IMG/VR virus record: IMGVR_UViG_3300043639_000033
Span: 1 to 29,408 of that record
Direction: 5' to 3' (one strand)
Length of the DNA: 29,408 nucleotides
From: a virus
A model generated the notes under the pieces. That model ran no database searches. It saw nothing but the letters and a program-made list of their open reading frames with translations, and was not told the origin of the DNA. This document shows, in pieces, positions 1 through 14,338 of the stretch. Positions within the stretch are counted from its first letter, which is position 1; the number at the start of each line of letters is the position of its first letter. The position numbers and the translations under genes were made by a program.

Positions 1-37
1 TCCTACCACAAACAGACTCCTCGGGAGGGAGTCGCAC

Positions 38-922
38 ATGGCTAAGAAGCAGCATACGACAACGCAAAAGCAAGTCACGGAAATCCTGAAAGTCTCGACG
101 GGCGGCTTCGACTGCTGCCTCGTCGGTCGCGACTTCGTCTGCAATCGCGTCAGCGAGAAGGCGAAGCGCGAGCTCTTGTTTCCCAACCCGCGCGTCAGCG
201 GGATTCGGACCACCCTGAAACACGTCCCGGTCGATGAATTTCGGGCGTCGCCGTATCTCTTGAAAGACCCGAGCCAACCGACGCTCCTGGCGATGTTGTC
301 GAGCGCGTTTCACAAGGCGATTGCGAACGCGACGCTCGACATGTCCGCGAAGAAAACGGAAATCTATCGCCGGATGTGGATTGAAGGCGACAAGACCAAC
401 ATCTACGGCGTGCCAAAGCTCTGGATGACGATCGTGCGGTCGGCCGACATGAACCGGACCCCCGATGTCCGGACGCGCGCGCGACTGCCGGAGTGGGCCT
501 GCCGGTTACGCATCACGTTTGTCGAGCCGCTGATCAAGGCGCAAGCCCTGGTGAATCTGCTGGCGTCCGCCGGTCTCACCATCGGCGTCGGCGATGGGCG
601 ACAGGAGAAGGGCTCGGGGATGCACTGCGGCAATTTCCGGATCGTCGGCGAGAACGATGCGGACTTCAAGCGCATCGTGAAAGAGGGCGGCCGCAAGGCG
701 CAGCAAGCGGCGCTCGATCACCCGGTCGCGTACGACGACGAAACGCTGGAGTTGCTGACGTGGTTCGACACCGAGCTCGAGCGACGGCGCAAAGCGGGGG
801 CGCCGCAGGTCGAGTCGGGCCCCGTGGCACACGCGCGGGCCGTTCGTCCCAACGGGAAGATCATCACGGACGGTCACCAGAAAGGGGCGCGCGGTGAAAC
901 TCACGCAAGCGCAGCTCGCTAG
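38..922 (+). CDS. Phage protein of unknown function with G-x-G-D-x-R-x-E-K-G motif
   Basis: A 294-residue protein with a good ribosome binding site (GGGAGGGAG, about 23-31) ahead of the ATG. No signal peptide or membrane segment is seen. The middle (residues about 120-205) alternates hydrophobic strands and ends in a glycine-rich stretch, GVGDGRQEKGSG followed by CGNFRIV. I know this kind of strand-loop-strand ending from a widespread phage family of unknown function whose members read roughly GVGEWRPEK-G-G-FG-F; that assignment is from memory and unproven. The C-terminus is charged and probably disordered. Its 3' end overlaps the next gene by 29 bases, so the two are probably co-translated. 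It lies just upstream of the pentamer array with one gene between. The beta-rich glycine-loop arrangement could suit a nucleic-acid-binding protein, but nothing in the sequence proves this. Confidence 0.8.
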   Translation: MAKKQHTTTQKQVTEILKVSTGGFDCCLVGRDFVCNRVSEKAKRELLFPNPRVSGIRTTLKHVPVDEFRASPYLLKDPSQPTLLAMLSSAFHKAIANATLDMSAKKTEIYRRMWIEGDKTNIYGVPKLWMTIVRSADMNRTPDVRTRARLPEWACRLRITFVEPLIKAQALVNLLASAGLTIGVGDGRQEKGSGMHCGNFRIVGENDADFKRIVKEGGRKAQQAALDHPVAYDDETLELLTWFDTELERRRKAGAPQVESGPVAHARAVRPNGKIITDGHQKGARGETHASAAR

Positions 923-1361
923 GATCAAGGCGCTCGAAAACAGCAAGGGCCAGATCACGGCCCGCCGGGTGCTCGAGGAGGCCCGGCAGGAGCGGAGCCC
1001 CTTACATCCGCTGTTTAACTGGGATGTGAAGCACGCCGCGGAACGCTGGTGGTTGCATCGCGCGCGGCTCGTGATCGGCGCGGTGTCGATCCAAGTCACG
1101 CACAACCACGCCGTGATCAAAGCCCCCTGTTACGTCGTGGACACGTCCGTCAAGGGTGAGGGGTATCGCAACGTGGTCGCCATGAAATCGGATGTCGCCT
1201 CGTCGCGGGAATCGCTGGTCTACACGCTGGAGATGGCGGCAGGACAGCTGCGCCGTGCGTACGACCTCGCCGTGCCACTCAAGTTGACGCGGGAGATCGA
1301 TACGTTGCTCGCGCAAATCGCGGGCGTCGCCCGCATCGCGCAGCAGAAGGAAGCGGCGTAA
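894..1361 (+). CDS. Conserved-looking phage protein, unknown function
   Basis: A 155-residue protein starting with GTG at 894, with AAAGGGG a few bases upstream inside the previous gene. The N-terminal segment resembles a short helical domain (residues 1-35) followed by the phrase SPLHPLFNWDVKHAAERW and a region rich in helix formers. A similar order, 'SPLH..F.WDD..AA...R...AR.LI', occurs in small proteins of many siphoviruses near recombination or replication genes; this is recalled family knowledge, not a search result. The C-terminal half (residues 100-155) is helical and Ala/Arg/Leu-rich. It overlaps the upstream gene by 29 bases and its stop codon is the left border of the pentamer array, so any transcript of this gene that continues would run into the array in its G-rich sense. 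Confidence 0.78.
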   Translation: MKLTQAQLARIKALENSKGQITARRVLEEARQERSPLHPLFNWDVKHAAERWWLHRARLVIGAVSIQVTHNHAVIKAPCYVVDTSVKGEGYRNVVAMKSDVASSRESLVYTLEMAAGQLRRAYDLAVPLKLTREIDTLLAQIAGVARIAQQKEAA

Positions 1362-2340
1362 AGCGGGGCGCGGCACGGCGCGAGGTGGCATGGCTCTGCA
1401 TGTCTAGGTGGGGCGTGAATGGCGCGGCGGGCGTGGCGTCGCAGCGCAGCGACGGGGCAATGCTTGGCAAGGATCGGCGAGGCGGGGTCAGTCGCGGCGC
1501 GGACTGGCGCGACATGGCACGGTGCGGCGCGGCGAGTCAGGTCCGGTTACGCGGGGCGTGGCCCGTTAGGCGAGGTCCGGTCGGCTCGGCAGGCGCGGTG
1601 CAAAGGCCTGGTCTGGCACGGCTTGGCGGGGCCGGATGCGGCTAGTTGCGGCCGGCACGGCGCGGCGCGGTATGGATTGGCACGGCACGGCGAGGCGTGA
1701 CGCGGCCTGGTCCGGCGAGCCCGGCGCGTCGGTGTTAGGCGTCGGCGGCGCGAGGCTGGATCAGGTTCGTCCAGGTCCGGCGAGGCGAGGCAGGCTCGGC
1801 GTGGCGCGGCCGGTTTGGGAACGGTTCGGCATCGGGGTGTTTGGCGAGGCAGGCAAGGCGTGGCGCGGCGGCGTGCGGAACGGCGAGGTTTGGCTCCGCA
1901 GGGATTGGCGTGACCGGCCGACGCGCGCGGACGGCGGGCGGGGTATGGATGGCGAGAGTACGACGTGGCGCGCACGGCACGGCGAGGGGCGCCACGGTCT
2001 GGCGCGGGCCGGATGTGGTCTGTTACGGCGGGCGAGGTTCGGCAAGGCGTGTCGAGGCGCGCGATGGTGCGACCGGGCCAGCAATGGTGCGGCGCGGCAT
2101 GGCAGGCGCGGCACGGCTTGGTTGGACAAGGTTCAGTCCGGTCGGGCGCGGTCAGGTCAGGCGTCGAAGGGCATGTCAGGAGTTGGTTCGGCACGGCAGG
2201 CGAGGCCCGGCGTGCGCGTGAAAGGTATGGCGCGTCACGGTTGGGACTGGCCCGGACGGCACGGCGAGGCAGGAGAGGTAAGGCGCGGCGCGGCTTCGCG
2301 GCGCGGGGTATGGCGTGGTCTGGCAAGGCAGGCACGCTCT
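1362..2340 (+). repeat. Degenerate pentanucleotide (GGYNN) array, about 980 bp, non-coding
   Basis: The whole interval is built on a 5-base step in which GG recurs, followed mostly by C or T and then two variable bases. In the block from 1654 to 1715, 12 of 13 successive positions spaced by exactly 5 (1654, 1659 ... 1714) begin GG; the exception is GA at 1699. Another clear block is 2224-2332. The grid slips by one base at intervals, as expected from small insertions and deletions, and then resumes. No long exact unit is repeated, so this is not a simple microsatellite: the GG frame is kept while the remaining bases vary. The G-rich strand is the coding strand of the flanking genes. Several overlapping reading frames on both strands are open only because the sequence is poor in TA; none spans the array, and stop codons at 1645, 1700 and elsewhere break them. 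Left border is the stop of the preceding gene; right border is about 2337, just before a normal ribosome binding site. Confidence 0.85.
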
Positions 2341-2375
2341 TTCACAAACTAACTAACGAAAGGTAGGCACCGAAA

Positions 2376-2543
2376 ATGGCACCAACAAAAGAACGTCCCG
2401 ATCACGATCTACCCGGCGGCGACCGTCCAGGCAATCGGCCGGATCAGGGATTACCAAGACCTGAGCGGCCCGGGGAGAAACCCGAGCCGCCGACGAAGCC
2501 GGTTGAACCGACCGAGCCGGCGCCGACGCCGCACACGACGTAA
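2376..2543 (+). CDS. Small Pro/Glu-rich protein (55 aa)
   Basis: An ATG at 2376 opens a 55-residue reading frame ending at the TAA at 2541-2543, with AAAGG about 10 bases upstream (2359-2363). The product is very rich in Pro, Glu, Asp, Arg and Gly (for example RPGEKPEPPTKPVEPTEP) and has no hydrophobic core, so it should be disordered. It is the first gene to the right of the pentamer array and is followed after 18 bases by another small gene. Function is not recognisable. It could be a short linker or acidic tail-like accessory protein, or a spurious frame; the clean ribosome binding site and the gene-dense setting favour a real gene. Confidence 0.55.
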   Translation: MAPTKERPDHDLPGGDRPGNRPDQGLPRPERPGEKPEPPTKPVEPTEPAPTPHTT

Positions 2544-2561
2544 CGCGAAGGGGATTCGACT

Positions 2562-2720
2562 ATGGCGAAGCGCGCGACCATCGCGGAGAAACTTCTACAA
2601 CGCATCGACGCGAAGATCGCGGCGCTTCGTCTCGCGCGCGAGGAGCTCGTGGCCGAGATCGAGGCGATGAAGACCAATCCGCAATCAACAACGGGCGACC
2701 AGGCGGCCGCCGACGAGTGA
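2562..2720 (+). CDS. Small coiled-coil protein (52 aa)
   Basis: ATG at 2562 with GAAGGGG about 8 bases upstream (2547-2553). The 52-residue product has a lysine/arginine-rich start (MAKRATIAEKLL) and then a heptad-like helix (residues about 8-36, RIDAKIAALRLAREELVAEI) with Ile/Leu spacing typical of a coiled coil, ending in a polar tail. Its TGA stop overlaps the GTG start of the following DUF1376-type gene (GTGA at 2717-2720), which points to translational coupling and to a shared role with that replication gene. The helix could serve for dimerisation or partner binding; no specific function is recognised. Confidence 0.65.
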   Translation: MAKRATIAEKLLQRIDAKIAALRLAREELVAEIEAMKTNPQSTTGDQAAADE

Positions 2721-3109
2721 CAGCGATGCCGATCCGATCCAACGGGCAACCGATTCGACACACCGCGCTCTACTGGTGGATCGACCGGTGGCGCAAGAGC
2801 ACGGCGTTCATCGACATGACGCTCGAACAGCAAGGCGCCTATCGGAACCTGCTCGACGAGGCGAGTCTCCGCGGCGGCGCGATTCCCGATAACGACGAGG
2901 TGCTCGCGAAAGCCTGCGGGGACCCGCGTCGCTGGCGGGCCCTCCGGAAGGTGGTCCTCGAGCGGTTCACGTTGACCCCGGACGGCTGGCGCAACGAAAC
3001 CCTCGACGGCGTCCTGAAAGAGACGGACCGACGCGCACTCAAGCAACGGAATTACCGGATACGAAACGGGCAACGCACACGCAGCGAAGTCGGTAACGAA
3101 TCACGGTAA
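2717..3109 (+). CDS. DUF1376 (YdaU-like) phage replication-associated protein, short form
   Basis: The product (130 aa from GTG 2717, or 127 aa from the in-frame ATG at 2726) carries the DUF1376 signature: YWWIDRWRKSTAFIDMTLEQ, then GAYRNLLDEA, and a DDEVLAKACG-like stretch (here NDEVLAKACGDPRRW) followed by a winged-helix-like helical segment. Proteins of this family sit at the position of lambda O/DnaA-like replication proteins in many prophages; the biochemical role is not firmly established. It is shorter than many relatives, which often continue with an Asn/Gly/Arg-rich tail and a further helical domain. Here the frame ends in RNYRIRNGQRTRSEVGNESR, directly in a cluster of GGTAACG repeats. 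The start overlaps the previous gene's stop. The shortened end could be natural or a result of frameshift. Confidence 0.8.
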   Translation: MTAMPIRSNGQPIRHTALYWWIDRWRKSTAFIDMTLEQQGAYRNLLDEASLRGGAIPDNDEVLAKACGDPRRWRALRKVVLERFTLTPDGWRNETLDGVLKETDRRALKQRNYRIRNGQRTRSEVGNESR

Positions 3110-10559: not shown

Positions 10560-12070
10560 TGGCGATTGTCCGCACGCTGAACGGCCTCCAGTCGATGACG
10601 CGCCGCAGCACGTCGACGCCGGCCCTCGCGCCCTCGCTGTCCGCCTACAGCGCCTCAACCTACGCGACGATCTACGCCACGCAGCCGAACGTCCGGATCT
10701 GCGTCGACTTCCTCGCCCGCAACATCGCGCAACTCGGGTATCACATTTTCCGCCGGGTCTCGGACACCGATCGCGTGCGGCTGACCGACCACGAGCTCGC
10801 GCAGTGGCTCGCGAAGCCCAATCCCACGACGACGCGCTATCGGCTCTTCGAATCCTTCATCGCCGATCTGGCGGTCTACTTCAACGCCTTCTGGCTGAAG
10901 GTCCGCATCAACGACCCGGACCAGCGGCGGATCGGCCTGGTGCGGATGCCGCCGGAAACGGTCGAGGTCCAGGGCGGCCTCCTGCCGTCCGGTGTGATCT
11001 GGACGTATGACGGGACGGCGACGCCGCTCGACATGACCGAGCTGGTCTATGCCAACGGCTACAACCCGCTCAACGCGCTGGTCGGCCTCTCGCCGCTCGA
11101 AACGCTGCGGCGCCTGCTCGCGGAAGACGTCGCCTCGAGCGATCATCGCGCCCGCTACTGGCAGAACGCGTCCCGCATGGAGGGCATCATCGAGCGGCCG
11201 AAGGACGCGCCGCGGTGGACGCCCGAACAGAAAACCGCGTGGCGCGCGCAGTGGCAGACGCGCTTCACGGGCATCCAGAGCACCGGACAGACGCCCGTCC
11301 TCGAGGACGGGATGACCTTCAAGCAGATCTCCTATTCGGCGCGCGACTCCGAATACGTCGCCGCCCGGCAGTTGACGCGCGAAGAGTGCGCCCGGGCGTA
11401 CCACATCCCGCTGCCGATGGTCGGGATTCTCGAGCACGCGACCTTCAGCAACGTGAAGGAGCAACACAAGCAGCTGTACGCCGATTGTCTCGGGCCATGG
11501 CTGGAAATGGTCAGCGAGGCGATCGAGCTCTGGTTACTGCCGGAGGCGCGCGACACGACCGACGTCTACGGGGAATTTAACATCGCCGCGAAACTGTCCG
11601 GTAGTTTCGAGGAACAAGCGAATGCCTTGCGGGTGCTCGTCGGTCGTCCCATCATGACGGCCAACGAAGGCCGCGCGCGGCTCAATCTCCCTTCGATCAA
11701 AGACGACGCGTCGGCCGACCAGCTCGCCGCACAACAGGGTGGGCCCTCGTCGTCACGCAGTAACCCCGACGCGGGCGTCGATATCCCCGCGGACGATGCA
11801 CCCGAGGCCCTCACCGCGACCGGAGCCTTACCGTTCGAACGCGCCGCCCCGATCATTCGCCGCCATCAGGAGCGGCAACGGGCGTTCTTGCAACGGTTGC
11901 CGGCCGCGGCGCGCGCCGAAGTCTTCCGCCTGCGGTGTCCGGACCGCTGGACGCCGGAACTATCGCGCGACCTGCGGGCCGTGTGCGAGGCCACGGAAGC
12001 CGATGCGATCGCCCGTTTCACCAACGAGGAAACCATCGGCCAACTCGAAAGGGATTCCGATGCCGCGTAA
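10559..12070 (+). CDS. Portal protein, HK97 family
   Basis: 503 residues from ATG 10559. The portal forms the dodecameric ring at the capsid vertex through which DNA is packaged and leaves. Family features: PNVRICVDFLARNIAQLGYH at the N-terminus, a long middle part, and the wing/stem part with ECARAYHIPLPMVGILEHAT, FSNVKEQHKQLYADCLGPWL. The last 110 residues (from about 395) form an extra C-terminal extension with a Ser/Pro/Asp-rich linker and a helical segment (ERAAPIIRRHQERQRAFLQR). The following protease gene begins at 12060, overlapping the portal end by 11 bases. Confidence 0.93.
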   Translation: MAIVRTLNGLQSMTRRSTSTPALAPSLSAYSASTYATIYATQPNVRICVDFLARNIAQLGYHIFRRVSDTDRVRLTDHELAQWLAKPNPTTTRYRLFESFIADLAVYFNAFWLKVRINDPDQRRIGLVRMPPETVEVQGGLLPSGVIWTYDGTATPLDMTELVYANGYNPLNALVGLSPLETLRRLLAEDVASSDHRARYWQNASRMEGIIERPKDAPRWTPEQKTAWRAQWQTRFTGIQSTGQTPVLEDGMTFKQISYSARDSEYVAARQLTREECARAYHIPLPMVGILEHATFSNVKEQHKQLYADCLGPWLEMVSEAIELWLLPEARDTTDVYGEFNIAAKLSGSFEEQANALRVLVGRPIMTANEGRARLNLPSIKDDASADQLAAQQGGPSSSRSNPDAGVDIPADDAPEALTATGALPFERAAPIIRRHQERQRAFLQRLPAAARAEVFRLRCPDRWTPELSRDLRAVCEATEADAIARFTNEETIGQLERDSDAA

Positions 12071-13070
12071 GCCGCACACGTACGACCACCTCGCCGCATT
12101 CGCCCTCGAGCACCCCTGGGCGTTGACGGACACCATGCGCGAGGTCGTCGCCAACACGATCGCGCGGCGCCTCGCCGGCCTGGACGACGACGAAGAGGGG
12201 ATCGTTCGCGCGCAACAGGCCCGCGCGACTCGCGATGTCGCCGTGCGGGGCGGCGGCCTGGTCGCCGTCCTGCCGCTGCACGGCGTCATCGCGCCGCGCA
12301 TGAACCTGTTATCGGAAATTTCCGGCGGCGCGACATTCGAAGGCCTGTCGAAGCAACTCAACGCCGCGGTCGCCGATCCGGACGTCACGACGATCGTCTT
12401 CGACGTCGACTCGCCGGGCGGCAACGTGGCGGGGGCGAGTGAATTCGCCCGCGAGGTCCTCCGGGCGCGCACCATCAAACCGATCATCGTGCAGGCGCAT
12501 CACCTGATGGCCTCCGCGGCGTACTGGGGGCTGGCTGGTGCCACGGAAATTGTCGCCAGTCCGTCCGCGATGATCGGTGCGATCGGCGTCATCGGCATTC
12601 ATGACGACCTGACGGCGGCGCGCGAGAAACTCGGCATCCACCGCGAAGTGTTGTCGGCCGGGAAGTACAAGGCCGAATCAGCCGGCGGGATGCCATTGTC
12701 CGAAGCGGCCCGCGCCCATGCCCAACATCTGATCGACGGTTTCTTTGGCCGGATGGTCGGTGACATCGCGAAAGGTCGCGGCGTCACCGCCGCCGCGGTC
12801 CGGAGCGGCTATGGCGAAGGCCGCATCCTGAACGTCGAGGATGCGCTCGCCGCCGGCCTCATTGATCGCATTGCCACCTTTGACGAAACCCTCGCGCGCG
12901 TCACGCAACCGGCGACGGCCGGTCGCGCCCGCGTCGCCGCCACGGCACCCCCCGCGATCACGGAGGCCCCGGCGGCCCCCCAGGAATCGCGCGTCGTCCC
13001 GGCCGGCGCTCAATTCGCAGTCTTCGAGCGGCGAGTGCTCGACCTGCATCTGCGGAGACGCGCCCCATGA
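12060..13070 (+). CDS. Head maturation protease, S49 (SppA-like) family
   Basis: 336 residues from ATG 12060, which overlaps the end of the portal gene; the upstream open frame is a shadow of the portal. Family features: VLPLHGVIAPR strand, VFDVDSPGGNVAGASEFARE (the GG loop of the oxyanion hole), QAHHLMASAAYWGLAGATEI with Ser152 as nucleophile, and GKYKAESAGG with Lys204 as likely general base, both matching the Ser/Lys dyad of SppA. The C-terminal 60 residues are Ala/Pro-rich and may serve as scaffold. In this cassette the protease degrades the scaffold/delta domain of the capsid protein. The stop overlaps the capsid start (ATGA, 13067-13070). Confidence 0.92.
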   Translation: MPRKPHTYDHLAAFALEHPWALTDTMREVVANTIARRLAGLDDDEEGIVRAQQARATRDVAVRGGGLVAVLPLHGVIAPRMNLLSEISGGATFEGLSKQLNAAVADPDVTTIVFDVDSPGGNVAGASEFAREVLRARTIKPIIVQAHHLMASAAYWGLAGATEIVASPSAMIGAIGVIGIHDDLTAAREKLGIHREVLSAGKYKAESAGGMPLSEAARAHAQHLIDGFFGRMVGDIAKGRGVTAAAVRSGYGEGRILNVEDALAAGLIDRIATFDETLARVTQPATAGRARVAATAPPAITEAPAAPQESRVVPAGAQFAVFERRVLDLHLRRRAP

Positions 13071-14338
13071 ATGTGACCCAACTCGAAGCCGACCTGCGCA
13101 CGTCGACGGCCAAAGCGATGGCCCTGATGGAGAAGACGCGCGCGGCCTGCGGCGAACCCGGATCGGCCGAGGCGCGCGACATGACGGCCGACGAAAAGTC
13201 CGCCATCAATGCGGCGCTCGGCGAGATGGAAGCCATCGAACTCAAGATCCGGAACGCGGCCAGCGACACCGCCTTGATGGCCCGGTTCGATGAGATTCGC
13301 AGCAAGCACGCCCCCGCGGTACCTGCGCTGCCGGCCGCCCCAGCGCGTCGGCTGGGATCGTTGGGCGCGCAGTTCACCGGGTCCGATCAGTTCAAGCAAC
13401 TGATCAAGAGCGGGCTGCATCGCGCGGGCCGGTCGTGGGCCTCGGGCGTCGTCGAGTGTTTCGACTATTCCGCGACGACGTTGACGGAAGACGCCGCATC
13501 GGGCGGCAAGCTGCTGACGCCGCAATACACCCCGGGCATCGTGCAGACGCTGTACAAGCGGCTCGTGGTCGCGGACCTGATGGCGTCGGGCACGGCCGAC
13601 AGCAACGCCATCACGTACATGGTGGAGACCCTCTTCACCAACGCGGCAGCGCCCGTACTCGAGGGCGCGGCGAAGCCGGAAAGCGCGATGACCTTCGACC
13701 AGAAAACGGACCTCGTGTCGAAGATCGCGCACTGGCTGCCGGTGACCGAGGAATTGTTGGAGGACGTCGCGGCCATCGCGAGTTACATCGACGCGCGGCT
13801 GCGGCTCGGGGTGCAGCTGGCCGAAGAGGACCAGTTGTTGAATGGCAACGGCACGCCGCCGAATCTGCTCGGCATCCTGAACCGGCCGGGGCTGGCGACG
13901 GCGGTTGCCCGCAATGCCGGCGCGACGCCGCCGGAAACCAACGCCGACGCGGTCCTGCGGCAGATCACCGCGATCGCCACCACGGCGTTCGTGTATCCCG
14001 ACGGCATCGTCATGAACCCGATGAACCTGTTCGCCATCCTGACGAGCAAGGACAGCAGCGGGGCGTACTACGGCGGCGGGCCGTTCTCGGCCTTGCCGAC
14101 GGCGTCGATCTGGGGCACGCCGGTCGCGCCGACGCCGTCGATCGTCGCGGGCACGGCGCTCGTCGGGGCGTTCGGCACGCAGTCGCAGGTCTACCGCAAG
14201 GGCGGGATTCGCGTCGAGGCCAGCAACTCGCATCAGGACTTCTTCATCAAGAACCTGGTCGCGATCCGGGCGGAAGAGCGGCTCGCCCTGGCCGTCTATC
14301 GTCCCGGCTCGTTCGGGAAGGTCACCGGCCTGAACTGA
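13067..14338 (+). CDS. Major capsid protein, HK97 fold
   Basis: 423 residues from ATG 13067. The N-terminal part (residues 1-90) is a charged helical delta domain (TSTAKAMALMEKTRAACGEP, then AALGEMEAIELKIRNAASDT) ending in a Pro/Ala-rich linker, which should be removed by the preceding protease. Residues about 120-423 show the HK97 core: GGKLLTPQYTPGIVQTLYKR, AHWLPVTEELLEDVAAIASY, DGIVMNPMNLFAILTSKDSS, GTPVAPTPSIVAGTALVGAF and NSHQDFFIKNLVAIRAEERL, typical of the last strand and helix of the P- and A-domains. The gene follows the usual portal, protease, capsid order. Confidence 0.94.
   Translation: MNVTQLEADLRTSTAKAMALMEKTRAACGEPGSAEARDMTADEKSAINAALGEMEAIELKIRNAASDTALMARFDEIRSKHAPAVPALPAAPARRLGSLGAQFTGSDQFKQLIKSGLHRAGRSWASGVVECFDYSATTLTEDAASGGKLLTPQYTPGIVQTLYKRLVVADLMASGTADSNAITYMVETLFTNAAAPVLEGAAKPESAMTFDQKTDLVSKIAHWLPVTEELLEDVAAIASYIDARLRLGVQLAEEDQLLNGNGTPPNLLGILNRPGLATAVARNAGATPPETNADAVLRQITAIATTAFVYPDGIVMNPMNLFAILTSKDSSGAYYGGGPFSALPTASIWGTPVAPTPSIVAGTALVGAFGTQSQVYRKGGIRVEASNSHQDFFIKNLVAIRAEERLALAVYRPGSFGKVTGLN

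What the first reader, a model, noticed from the sequence alone, without database searches (positions are those of the whole stretch)
1362..2340. Long degenerate pentanucleotide array, GGYNN, strand-specific and non-coding
Nearly 1 kb is built on a 5-base grid that starts GG on the + strand, followed mostly by a pyrimidine and two variable bases; between 1654 and 1714 12 of 13 steps of exactly 5 carry GG. The unit is not copied exactly, so ordinary slippage repeats are a poor explanation; rather the GG frame has been kept while the other bases changed, with occasional single-base slips. It fills the whole gap between a gene stop and the next ribosome binding site, occupying a size a phage would normally use for a gene. 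A maintained rule over non-coding DNA implies a function: a binding array for a protein that recognises GG every half turn, a structural RNA, a packaging or replication element, a recombination substrate, or a decoy. I cannot decide among these.
Basis: partly seen in the sequence, partly recalled or inferred. Interest (0 to 1): 0.92.

Follow-up and report, generated by a model that had tools for sequence, protein, structure and literature searches.

The report
Phage VIPR guide-RNA array (GGY/NN repeats)
The odd GG-every-five-bases DNA is a bank of guide RNAs belonging to VIPR, a phage-encoded RNA-guided weapon described in a 2026 preprint, and several of its guides spell out capsid-assembly genes of related phages.

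Summary
In detail: 177 GGYNN units fill window 1363-2332 (GG-GG at lag 5: 94 against 36 +/- 5 in shuffles). It is the vrRNA array of a VIPR system (Viral Interference Programmable Repeat; preprint PMC13142463, 2026). The gene two places upstream (38-922) encodes the Vipr RAMP protein: its family profile hits the solved 'SUSP1 Vipr protein' (E 4e-41), and its predicted fold matches Csm3/Cas7. Across >100 virus contigs such arrays mostly sit beside a vipr gene, always on the same strand (211 to 0); control loci have none. The gene between (894-1361) is a conserved partner, a probable vap. Reading the NN pairs by the published 1-nt-skip rule, three blocks decode in frame, skip base at the wobble position, to two neighbouring head genes, the prohead protease and the major capsid protein. 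Related phages match better (22/26, 23/28, 19-21/22 bases) than the phage's own genes (20/26, 22/28, 17/22). So this is a new member of a very recently described kind. The targeting of head genes of near relatives is the new, inferred part. Expression, processing and silencing were not tested.

The parts
38..922 (+). vipr gene (P0001, 294 aa): RAMP-fold guide-RNA-binding protein, phrog_4652
   Evidence: profile of 81 family members hits PDB 36pp_D 'SUSP1 Vipr protein' E 4.3e-41; P0001 found at E 7e-20 by the profile without it and its near relatives; AF2 pLDDT 86, Foldseek top hits Csm3 E 8.8e-6, VIA Z 9.5
894..1361 (+). probable vap gene (P0002, 155 aa, phrog_15946), overlaps the vipr stop and ends just before the array
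   Evidence: same family beside vipr in about 30 loci, including Gordonia and Mycobacterium phages; AF2 pLDDT 91, no significant fold match
1363..2332 (+). vrRNA array: 177 GGYNN units in phase-coherent blocks joined mostly by 4-nt units (GGCA)
1852..1912 (+). guide block decoding to [KN]VAGAT[DE][FL]S[SR]..: prohead protease motif
   Evidence: own protease NVAGASEFAREVL at 12423; L326/L334/L347/L348 NVAGATEFSREVL, 22/26 bases, in frame
2031..2100 (+). guide block decoding to [DE]S[KN]V[DE]A[IM]AR[HQ][IM]AA[IM]: major capsid protein
   Evidence: L326/L347/L348 ETNADAILRQITAI 23/28 bases, 0/1000 permutations as good in L348; own 22/28
2199..2253 (+). guide block decoding to [DE]PVR[KN]IATWLP: major capsid protein
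   Evidence: 21/22 bases in capsid genes of L270, L273, L274, L275, L279; 19/22 in L348; 17/22 in own capsid gene
12060..13070 (+). own S49/ClpP-like prohead protease gene (named from its sequence), homolog of the predicted target of block 1852
   Evidence: sequence; best own match at 12423 with skip 1
13067..14338 (+). own HK97-type major capsid protein, homolog of the predicted targets of blocks 2031 and 2199
   Evidence: PF05065 E 8.6e-46

Best explanation
The region is the guide-RNA (vrRNA) array of a phage-encoded VIPR system. It is transcribed in the sense of vipr and vap. Vipr subunits would hold the GGY of each 5-nt unit and present the two variable bases, which pair with double-stranded DNA in the pattern NN-x-NN-x, one target base skipped per unit. 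The bound complex represses the target. In this phage at least three blocks are best read as guides against two adjacent head genes (prohead protease and major capsid protein) of related phages, with extra mismatches to its own copies, i.e. exclusion of close competitors. Shown here: array statistics, Vipr identity and fold, linkage and strand rule across many phages, in-frame decoding. Taken from the preprint (PMC13142463): RNA expression, Vipr-RNA complex, 1-nt skip rule, repression. Inferred: that this locus is expressed and active, that P0002 is a vap, and that the named genes are the true targets.
For: Vipr: 36pp_D, E 4.3e-41; P0001 E 7e-20 by a profile without it; Csm3 E 8.8e-6; Z 9.5 to Csm3. 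Linkage: 50 of 65 IMG/VR array loci with 1.5 kb on both sides have vipr within 1.5 kb, all 5 named-phage loci too; 0 of 51 control virus loci, 0 of 111 low-entropy chromosomal GGY repeats; strand 211 to 0. Same order vipr-vap-array in relatives. Preprint: vrRNAs of alternating GGY/NN, vipr flanked by long intergenic repeats. Targets: block 1852 aligned to the own protease; the IMG/VR scan then found protease homologs with 18/18 bases over its first 9 units; in those contigs blocks 2031 and 2199, not used to find them, hit the capsid gene in frame with 0 of 1000 permutations as good, and only with skip 1.
Against: No expression data. GG is intact in only 73% of units (0.74-0.81 in near relatives L080 and L079), and the preprint reports that altered GGY abolishes silencing, so part of the array may be dead. 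No perfect target was found; block 2031 fits the competitor hardly better than self (23 against 22 of 28). About eight other blocks have no convincing target. The own-genome clustering test alone is weak (p 0.03-0.04). P0001 alone finds nothing in the PDB by sequence; the link is through its family.
Confidence: 0.95

Rival explanations
1. VIPR array as above, but the capsid/protease reading is chance or indirect and the true targets are other genes or phages not in the collections.
For: No 22/22 match; other block scans gave nothing convincing; scanning a collection this large makes 20-21/22 matches not impossible; own-genome matches are related by homology to competitor matches.
Against: Blocks 2031 and 2199 hit, in frame and only with skip 1, contigs chosen by block 1852 alone; three blocks fall in two adjacent genes.
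Confidence: 0.2
2. The guides act on the phage's own head genes as a timing device (self-regulation of late genes) rather than on competitors.
For: Best own-genome matches of three blocks lie in the own protease and capsid genes.
Against: Relatives match better at each site, and own mismatches include whole dinucleotides; distant capsid genes match 21/22.
Confidence: 0.08
3. mRNA-leader binding array for a ring protein such as a TRAP-like regulator (5-nt spaced triplets).
Against: The linked protein is a RAMP; variable bases decode to proteins; no TRAP-like gene was noticed among shared families.
Confidence: 0.01
4. Simple slippage repeat without function.
For: Pure pentamer runs exist in chromosomes.
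Against: Those are low-entropy and never beside vipr (0 of 111); phage arrays use all 16 NN pairs with GG kept.
Confidence: 0.01

Closest known systems
VIPR systems (SUSP1 and P. fulva prophage; PMC13142463)
   Same: RAMP-fold Vipr homolog, partner gene, sense-strand GGY/NN arrays beside them, phage-borne; NN pairs readable with a 1-nt skip at codon wobble positions
   Different: Long array (177 units) of joined blocks with 4-nt joints, probably the preprint's 'staggered' kind; lower GG retention; predicted targets are head genes of near relatives, not satellites or lysis-lysogeny regulators
Class 1 CRISPR-Cas (Csm3/Cas7 of type III)
   Same: RAMP fold of the RNA-holding subunit
   Different: No repeat-spacer array, no cas genes seen, noncontiguous code, 5-nt instead of 6-nt period
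TIGR-Tas (PMC12045711)
   Same: phage-borne tandem guide RNA arrays
   Different: other protein family and array design (from title, abstract and general knowledge; not tested)

Membership tests
VIPR | Vipr protein homologous to SUSP1 Vipr | tested here: met
   family profile hits 36pp_D E 4.3e-41; P0001 in the family at E 7e-20 by a profile without it; P0001 alone gives no hit
VIPR | RAMP fold: RRM-like core with glycine-rich loop | tested here: met
   AF2 pLDDT 86.4; Foldseek Csm3 E 8.8e-6; VIA Z 9.5; conserved G.GD.RP....GRF segment in the alignment
VIPR | Tandem GGY/NN repeats next to vipr, same strand | tested here: met
VIPR | vrRNA of 9-16 repeats | tested here: inconclusive
   longer phase-coherent blocks of 9-18 units, plus short ones and one of 24; boundaries uncertain
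VIPR | vap accessory gene | tested here: inconclusive
VIPR | NN code with 1-nt skip, skip at wobble, target in other mobile elements | tested here: met
   blocks 1852, 2031, 2199 in head genes of related phages, in frame, skip 1 only; a sequence prediction, not a binding test
VIPR | vrRNA expression and Vipr-vrRNA complex | not testable with these tools
   needs RNA-seq and pull-down
VIPR | conserved structured 3' tail, or hammerhead-interspersed or staggered array type | tested here: inconclusive
   no hammerhead found by Rfam in 1-3000; regular 4-nt joints fit 'staggered'; supplement not readable; tail not tested
CRISPR-Cas | identical repeats with spacers, cas operon | tested here: not met
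   no such repeats; no cas gene among the genes scanned near the array

The most novel reading that the evidence does not exclude
A VIPR array dedicated to policing the head-gene cassette: several guides against the prohead protease and major capsid genes of the phage's closest competitors, each spared at home by a few mismatches, so that capsid genes themselves evolve under guide pressure (escape only through amino-acid change, since the code ignores wobble bases); possibly also tuning the phage's own late genes.
Probability: 0.45. Interest if true: 0.72.

Novelty: new member of a known kind. Interest (0 to 1): 0.6.

Why it matters
VIPR was described only in April-June 2026. This locus, found without knowledge of it, independently supports the family: array statistics, gene linkage, strand rule, RAMP fold and, for three blocks, the 1-nt-skip code. 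It adds a likely target class, structural head genes of near relatives with self mismatches, which would make VIPR a superinfection-exclusion system and make inter-phage targets predictable from sequence alone.

Tried and rejected
TRAP-like ring protein, mRNA leader and ribosome-binding readings were my first ideas, dropped when the linked protein proved a RAMP. Comparing skip rules with 296 guides over the fetched loci (2.4 Mb) did not separate them (98, 109, 95, 116 hits at 80%). One 19/20 match from L091 to L061 is isolated and not in frame with the longest ORF. IMG/VR scans for blocks 1654, 2272, 1363 and 2031 gave no convincing extended target; L281 (19/20) lies in a short ORF and was not pursued. 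Most of the 60 contigs hit by the block-1852 pattern belong to other protein families sharing VAGATDFS or VAGATELS; only five carry the protease. The alignment of block 2272 to the own capsid gene was not supported in L348. P0002 has no fold match in PDB. BLAST of the array against named phages finds only similar arrays; its empty result elsewhere means little. TRAP was not listed by the fold search, which does not exclude it formally.

Full report
Observation. The region 1362-2340 has 94 GG-GG pairs at distance 5 against 36.0 +/- 5.4 in dinucleotide-preserving shuffles, with maxima at every multiple of 5 up to 30; no other part of the window behaves so, and the opposite strand is silent. A phase-tracking HMM delimits it to 1363-2332, 177 units, GG intact in 73%. 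Phase changes are not random slips: 16 of 20 have the same sign, a 4-nt unit, often GGCA; over all loci 277 of 355 joints are of this kind, and 34 of 39 loci with at least four joints use one joint type for 80% or more of them.

Where else it occurs. The window is an IMG/VR record of 29,408 bases. Those arrays are degenerate, using all 16 NN pairs with GGY kept. In bacterial genome contigs a similar pattern finds mostly pure pentamer repeats of low entropy.

The linked protein. All-against-all comparison of the ORFs in the array loci gave one family present in 89 of 128 loci, at a median 18 bases from an array; the window's P0001 (38-922) belongs to it. With a profile of that family, 50 of 65 IMG/VR array loci with 1.5 kb on both sides have a member within 1.5 kb, all five named-phage loci do, and 0 of 51 control virus loci and 0 of 111 low-entropy repeat loci do; 211 array chains lie on the strand of the gene and 0 on the other. 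P0001 scores E 7e-20 with a profile from which it and its nearest relatives were removed. The family is phrog_4652, function unknown.

What the protein is. The family profile hits one solved chain strongly, 36pp_D 'SUSP1 Vipr protein', E 4.3e-41. Independently, the AlphaFold2 model of P0001 (pLDDT 86) has Csm3/Cas7 subunits of type III CRISPR complexes as best PDB matches (Foldseek E 8.8e-6; VIA Z 9.5 over 154 residues). The preprint behind the name (PMC13142463; read) describes VIPR: a RAMP homolog, an accessory gene, and vrRNAs of alternating GGY/NN whose NN pairs read double-stranded DNA with one skipped base per unit, mostly at codon wobble positions, to repress competing mobile elements. 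Array types include staggered, overlapping arrays; the supplement was not readable here.

Anatomy. Order in the window: vipr 38-922, P0002 894-1361, array 1363-2332, then small genes, a DUF1376 replication-type gene, terminase, portal, protease, capsid, tail. The near relative L003 (86% identity over 126 aa) has a divergent repressor region, exonuclease VIII and an array about 123 bases upstream of vipr; the window record is cut just before that place, so an upstream array may be missing. P0002 has relatives beside vipr in about 30 loci, among them Gordonia phages UmaThurman and Ecliptus and Mycobacterium phages Mattes and Donkeykong, and is probably a vap; its model is confident (pLDDT 91) but matches nothing solved.

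Decoding the window. With the 1-nt-skip rule a block reads as a string of codons lacking the third base. Block 2199-2253 gives [DE]PVR[KN]IATWLP. An 8-unit pattern of it finds 12 IMG/VR contigs; ten of these (L269-L277, L279) carry the motif in frame in a long ORF, matching 20-21 of 22 bases, and the six ORFs tested with Pfam are all HK97-type capsid proteins. The phage's own capsid gene has DLVSKIAHWLP there, 17 of 22. Aligning all blocks to the own genome put blocks 1852, 2031 and 2199 in frame into the own protease and capsid genes. This test alone is weak: with block 2272 counted, p is 0.03-0.04 by permutation, and block 2272 was not supported afterwards. It did predict that block 1852 should meet protease homologs. 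The scan for block 1852 then found five contigs with that gene (L312, L326, L334, L347, L348), four of them reading NVAGATEFSREVL, with 18 of 18 bases over the first nine units; the own gene reads NVAGASEFAREVL. In L326, L347 and L348, chosen by block 1852 only, blocks 2031 and 2199 also hit the capsid gene in frame: 23 of 28 and 19 of 22 bases, 0 of 1000 unit-order permutations as good for each in L348, while skip 0, 2 and 3 stay at background. Own sites score 20/26, 22/28 and 17/22 against 22/26, 23/28 and 19-21/22 in relatives. The head genes of L348 are 65-66% identical to the window's.

Limits. These are predictions; no exact target was found, the difference between self and relative is small for block 2031, and about eight further blocks remain unread. 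Matches in relatives are not independent of matches in the own genome, because the genes are homologous; the cleanest test is that blocks 2031 and 2199 hit contigs that block 1852 had picked. The low GG retention suggests that part of the array may be inactive. A comparison of skip rules over all fetched loci was uninformative.

Verdict. The finding is a real VIPR array, a new member of a kind made public in 2026. The kind is remarkable; this member adds a probable target class, the head genes of close relatives.

Noticed in passing
L245:4007-4339 (Gordonia phage UmaThurman, NC_031249.1): The deposited gene 40 lies almost wholly inside the GGYNN array, so it is very probably a spurious ORF; annotated genes also underlie array matches in several Mycobacterium phages.
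   Followed up: partly
L010, L015, L019, L023, L025, L026, L040, L043, L045, L060, L076, L106, L113, L117, L120: Degenerate GGYNN arrays with no detectable vipr gene within 1.5 kb (15 of 65 loci): orphan vrRNAs, diverged Vipr proteins or satellites.
   Followed up: no
L247:4001-4732 (Pseudomonas aeruginosa phage LESphi2, OQ594955.1): A P. aeruginosa temperate phage carries a vipr homolog (P21_9, E 4e-53) beside a short array, downstream of its CI repressor gene.
   Followed up: partly
L090, L036, L035, L053, L105: Loci with a joint length different from the common 4-nt one but mostly constant within the locus, e.g. CTAATG between the blocks of L090; possible processing signals.
   Followed up: no
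L005, L030, L011: Arrays whose blocks are separated by conserved spacers of about 35-45 bases, possibly structured 3' tails.
   Followed up: no
all loci, variable bases: NN pairs are not uniform: GC, GA and AA are commonest, CC, CA, CT and TA rarest (6021 units), as expected if most guides copy the first two codon positions of the coding strand.
   Followed up: partly
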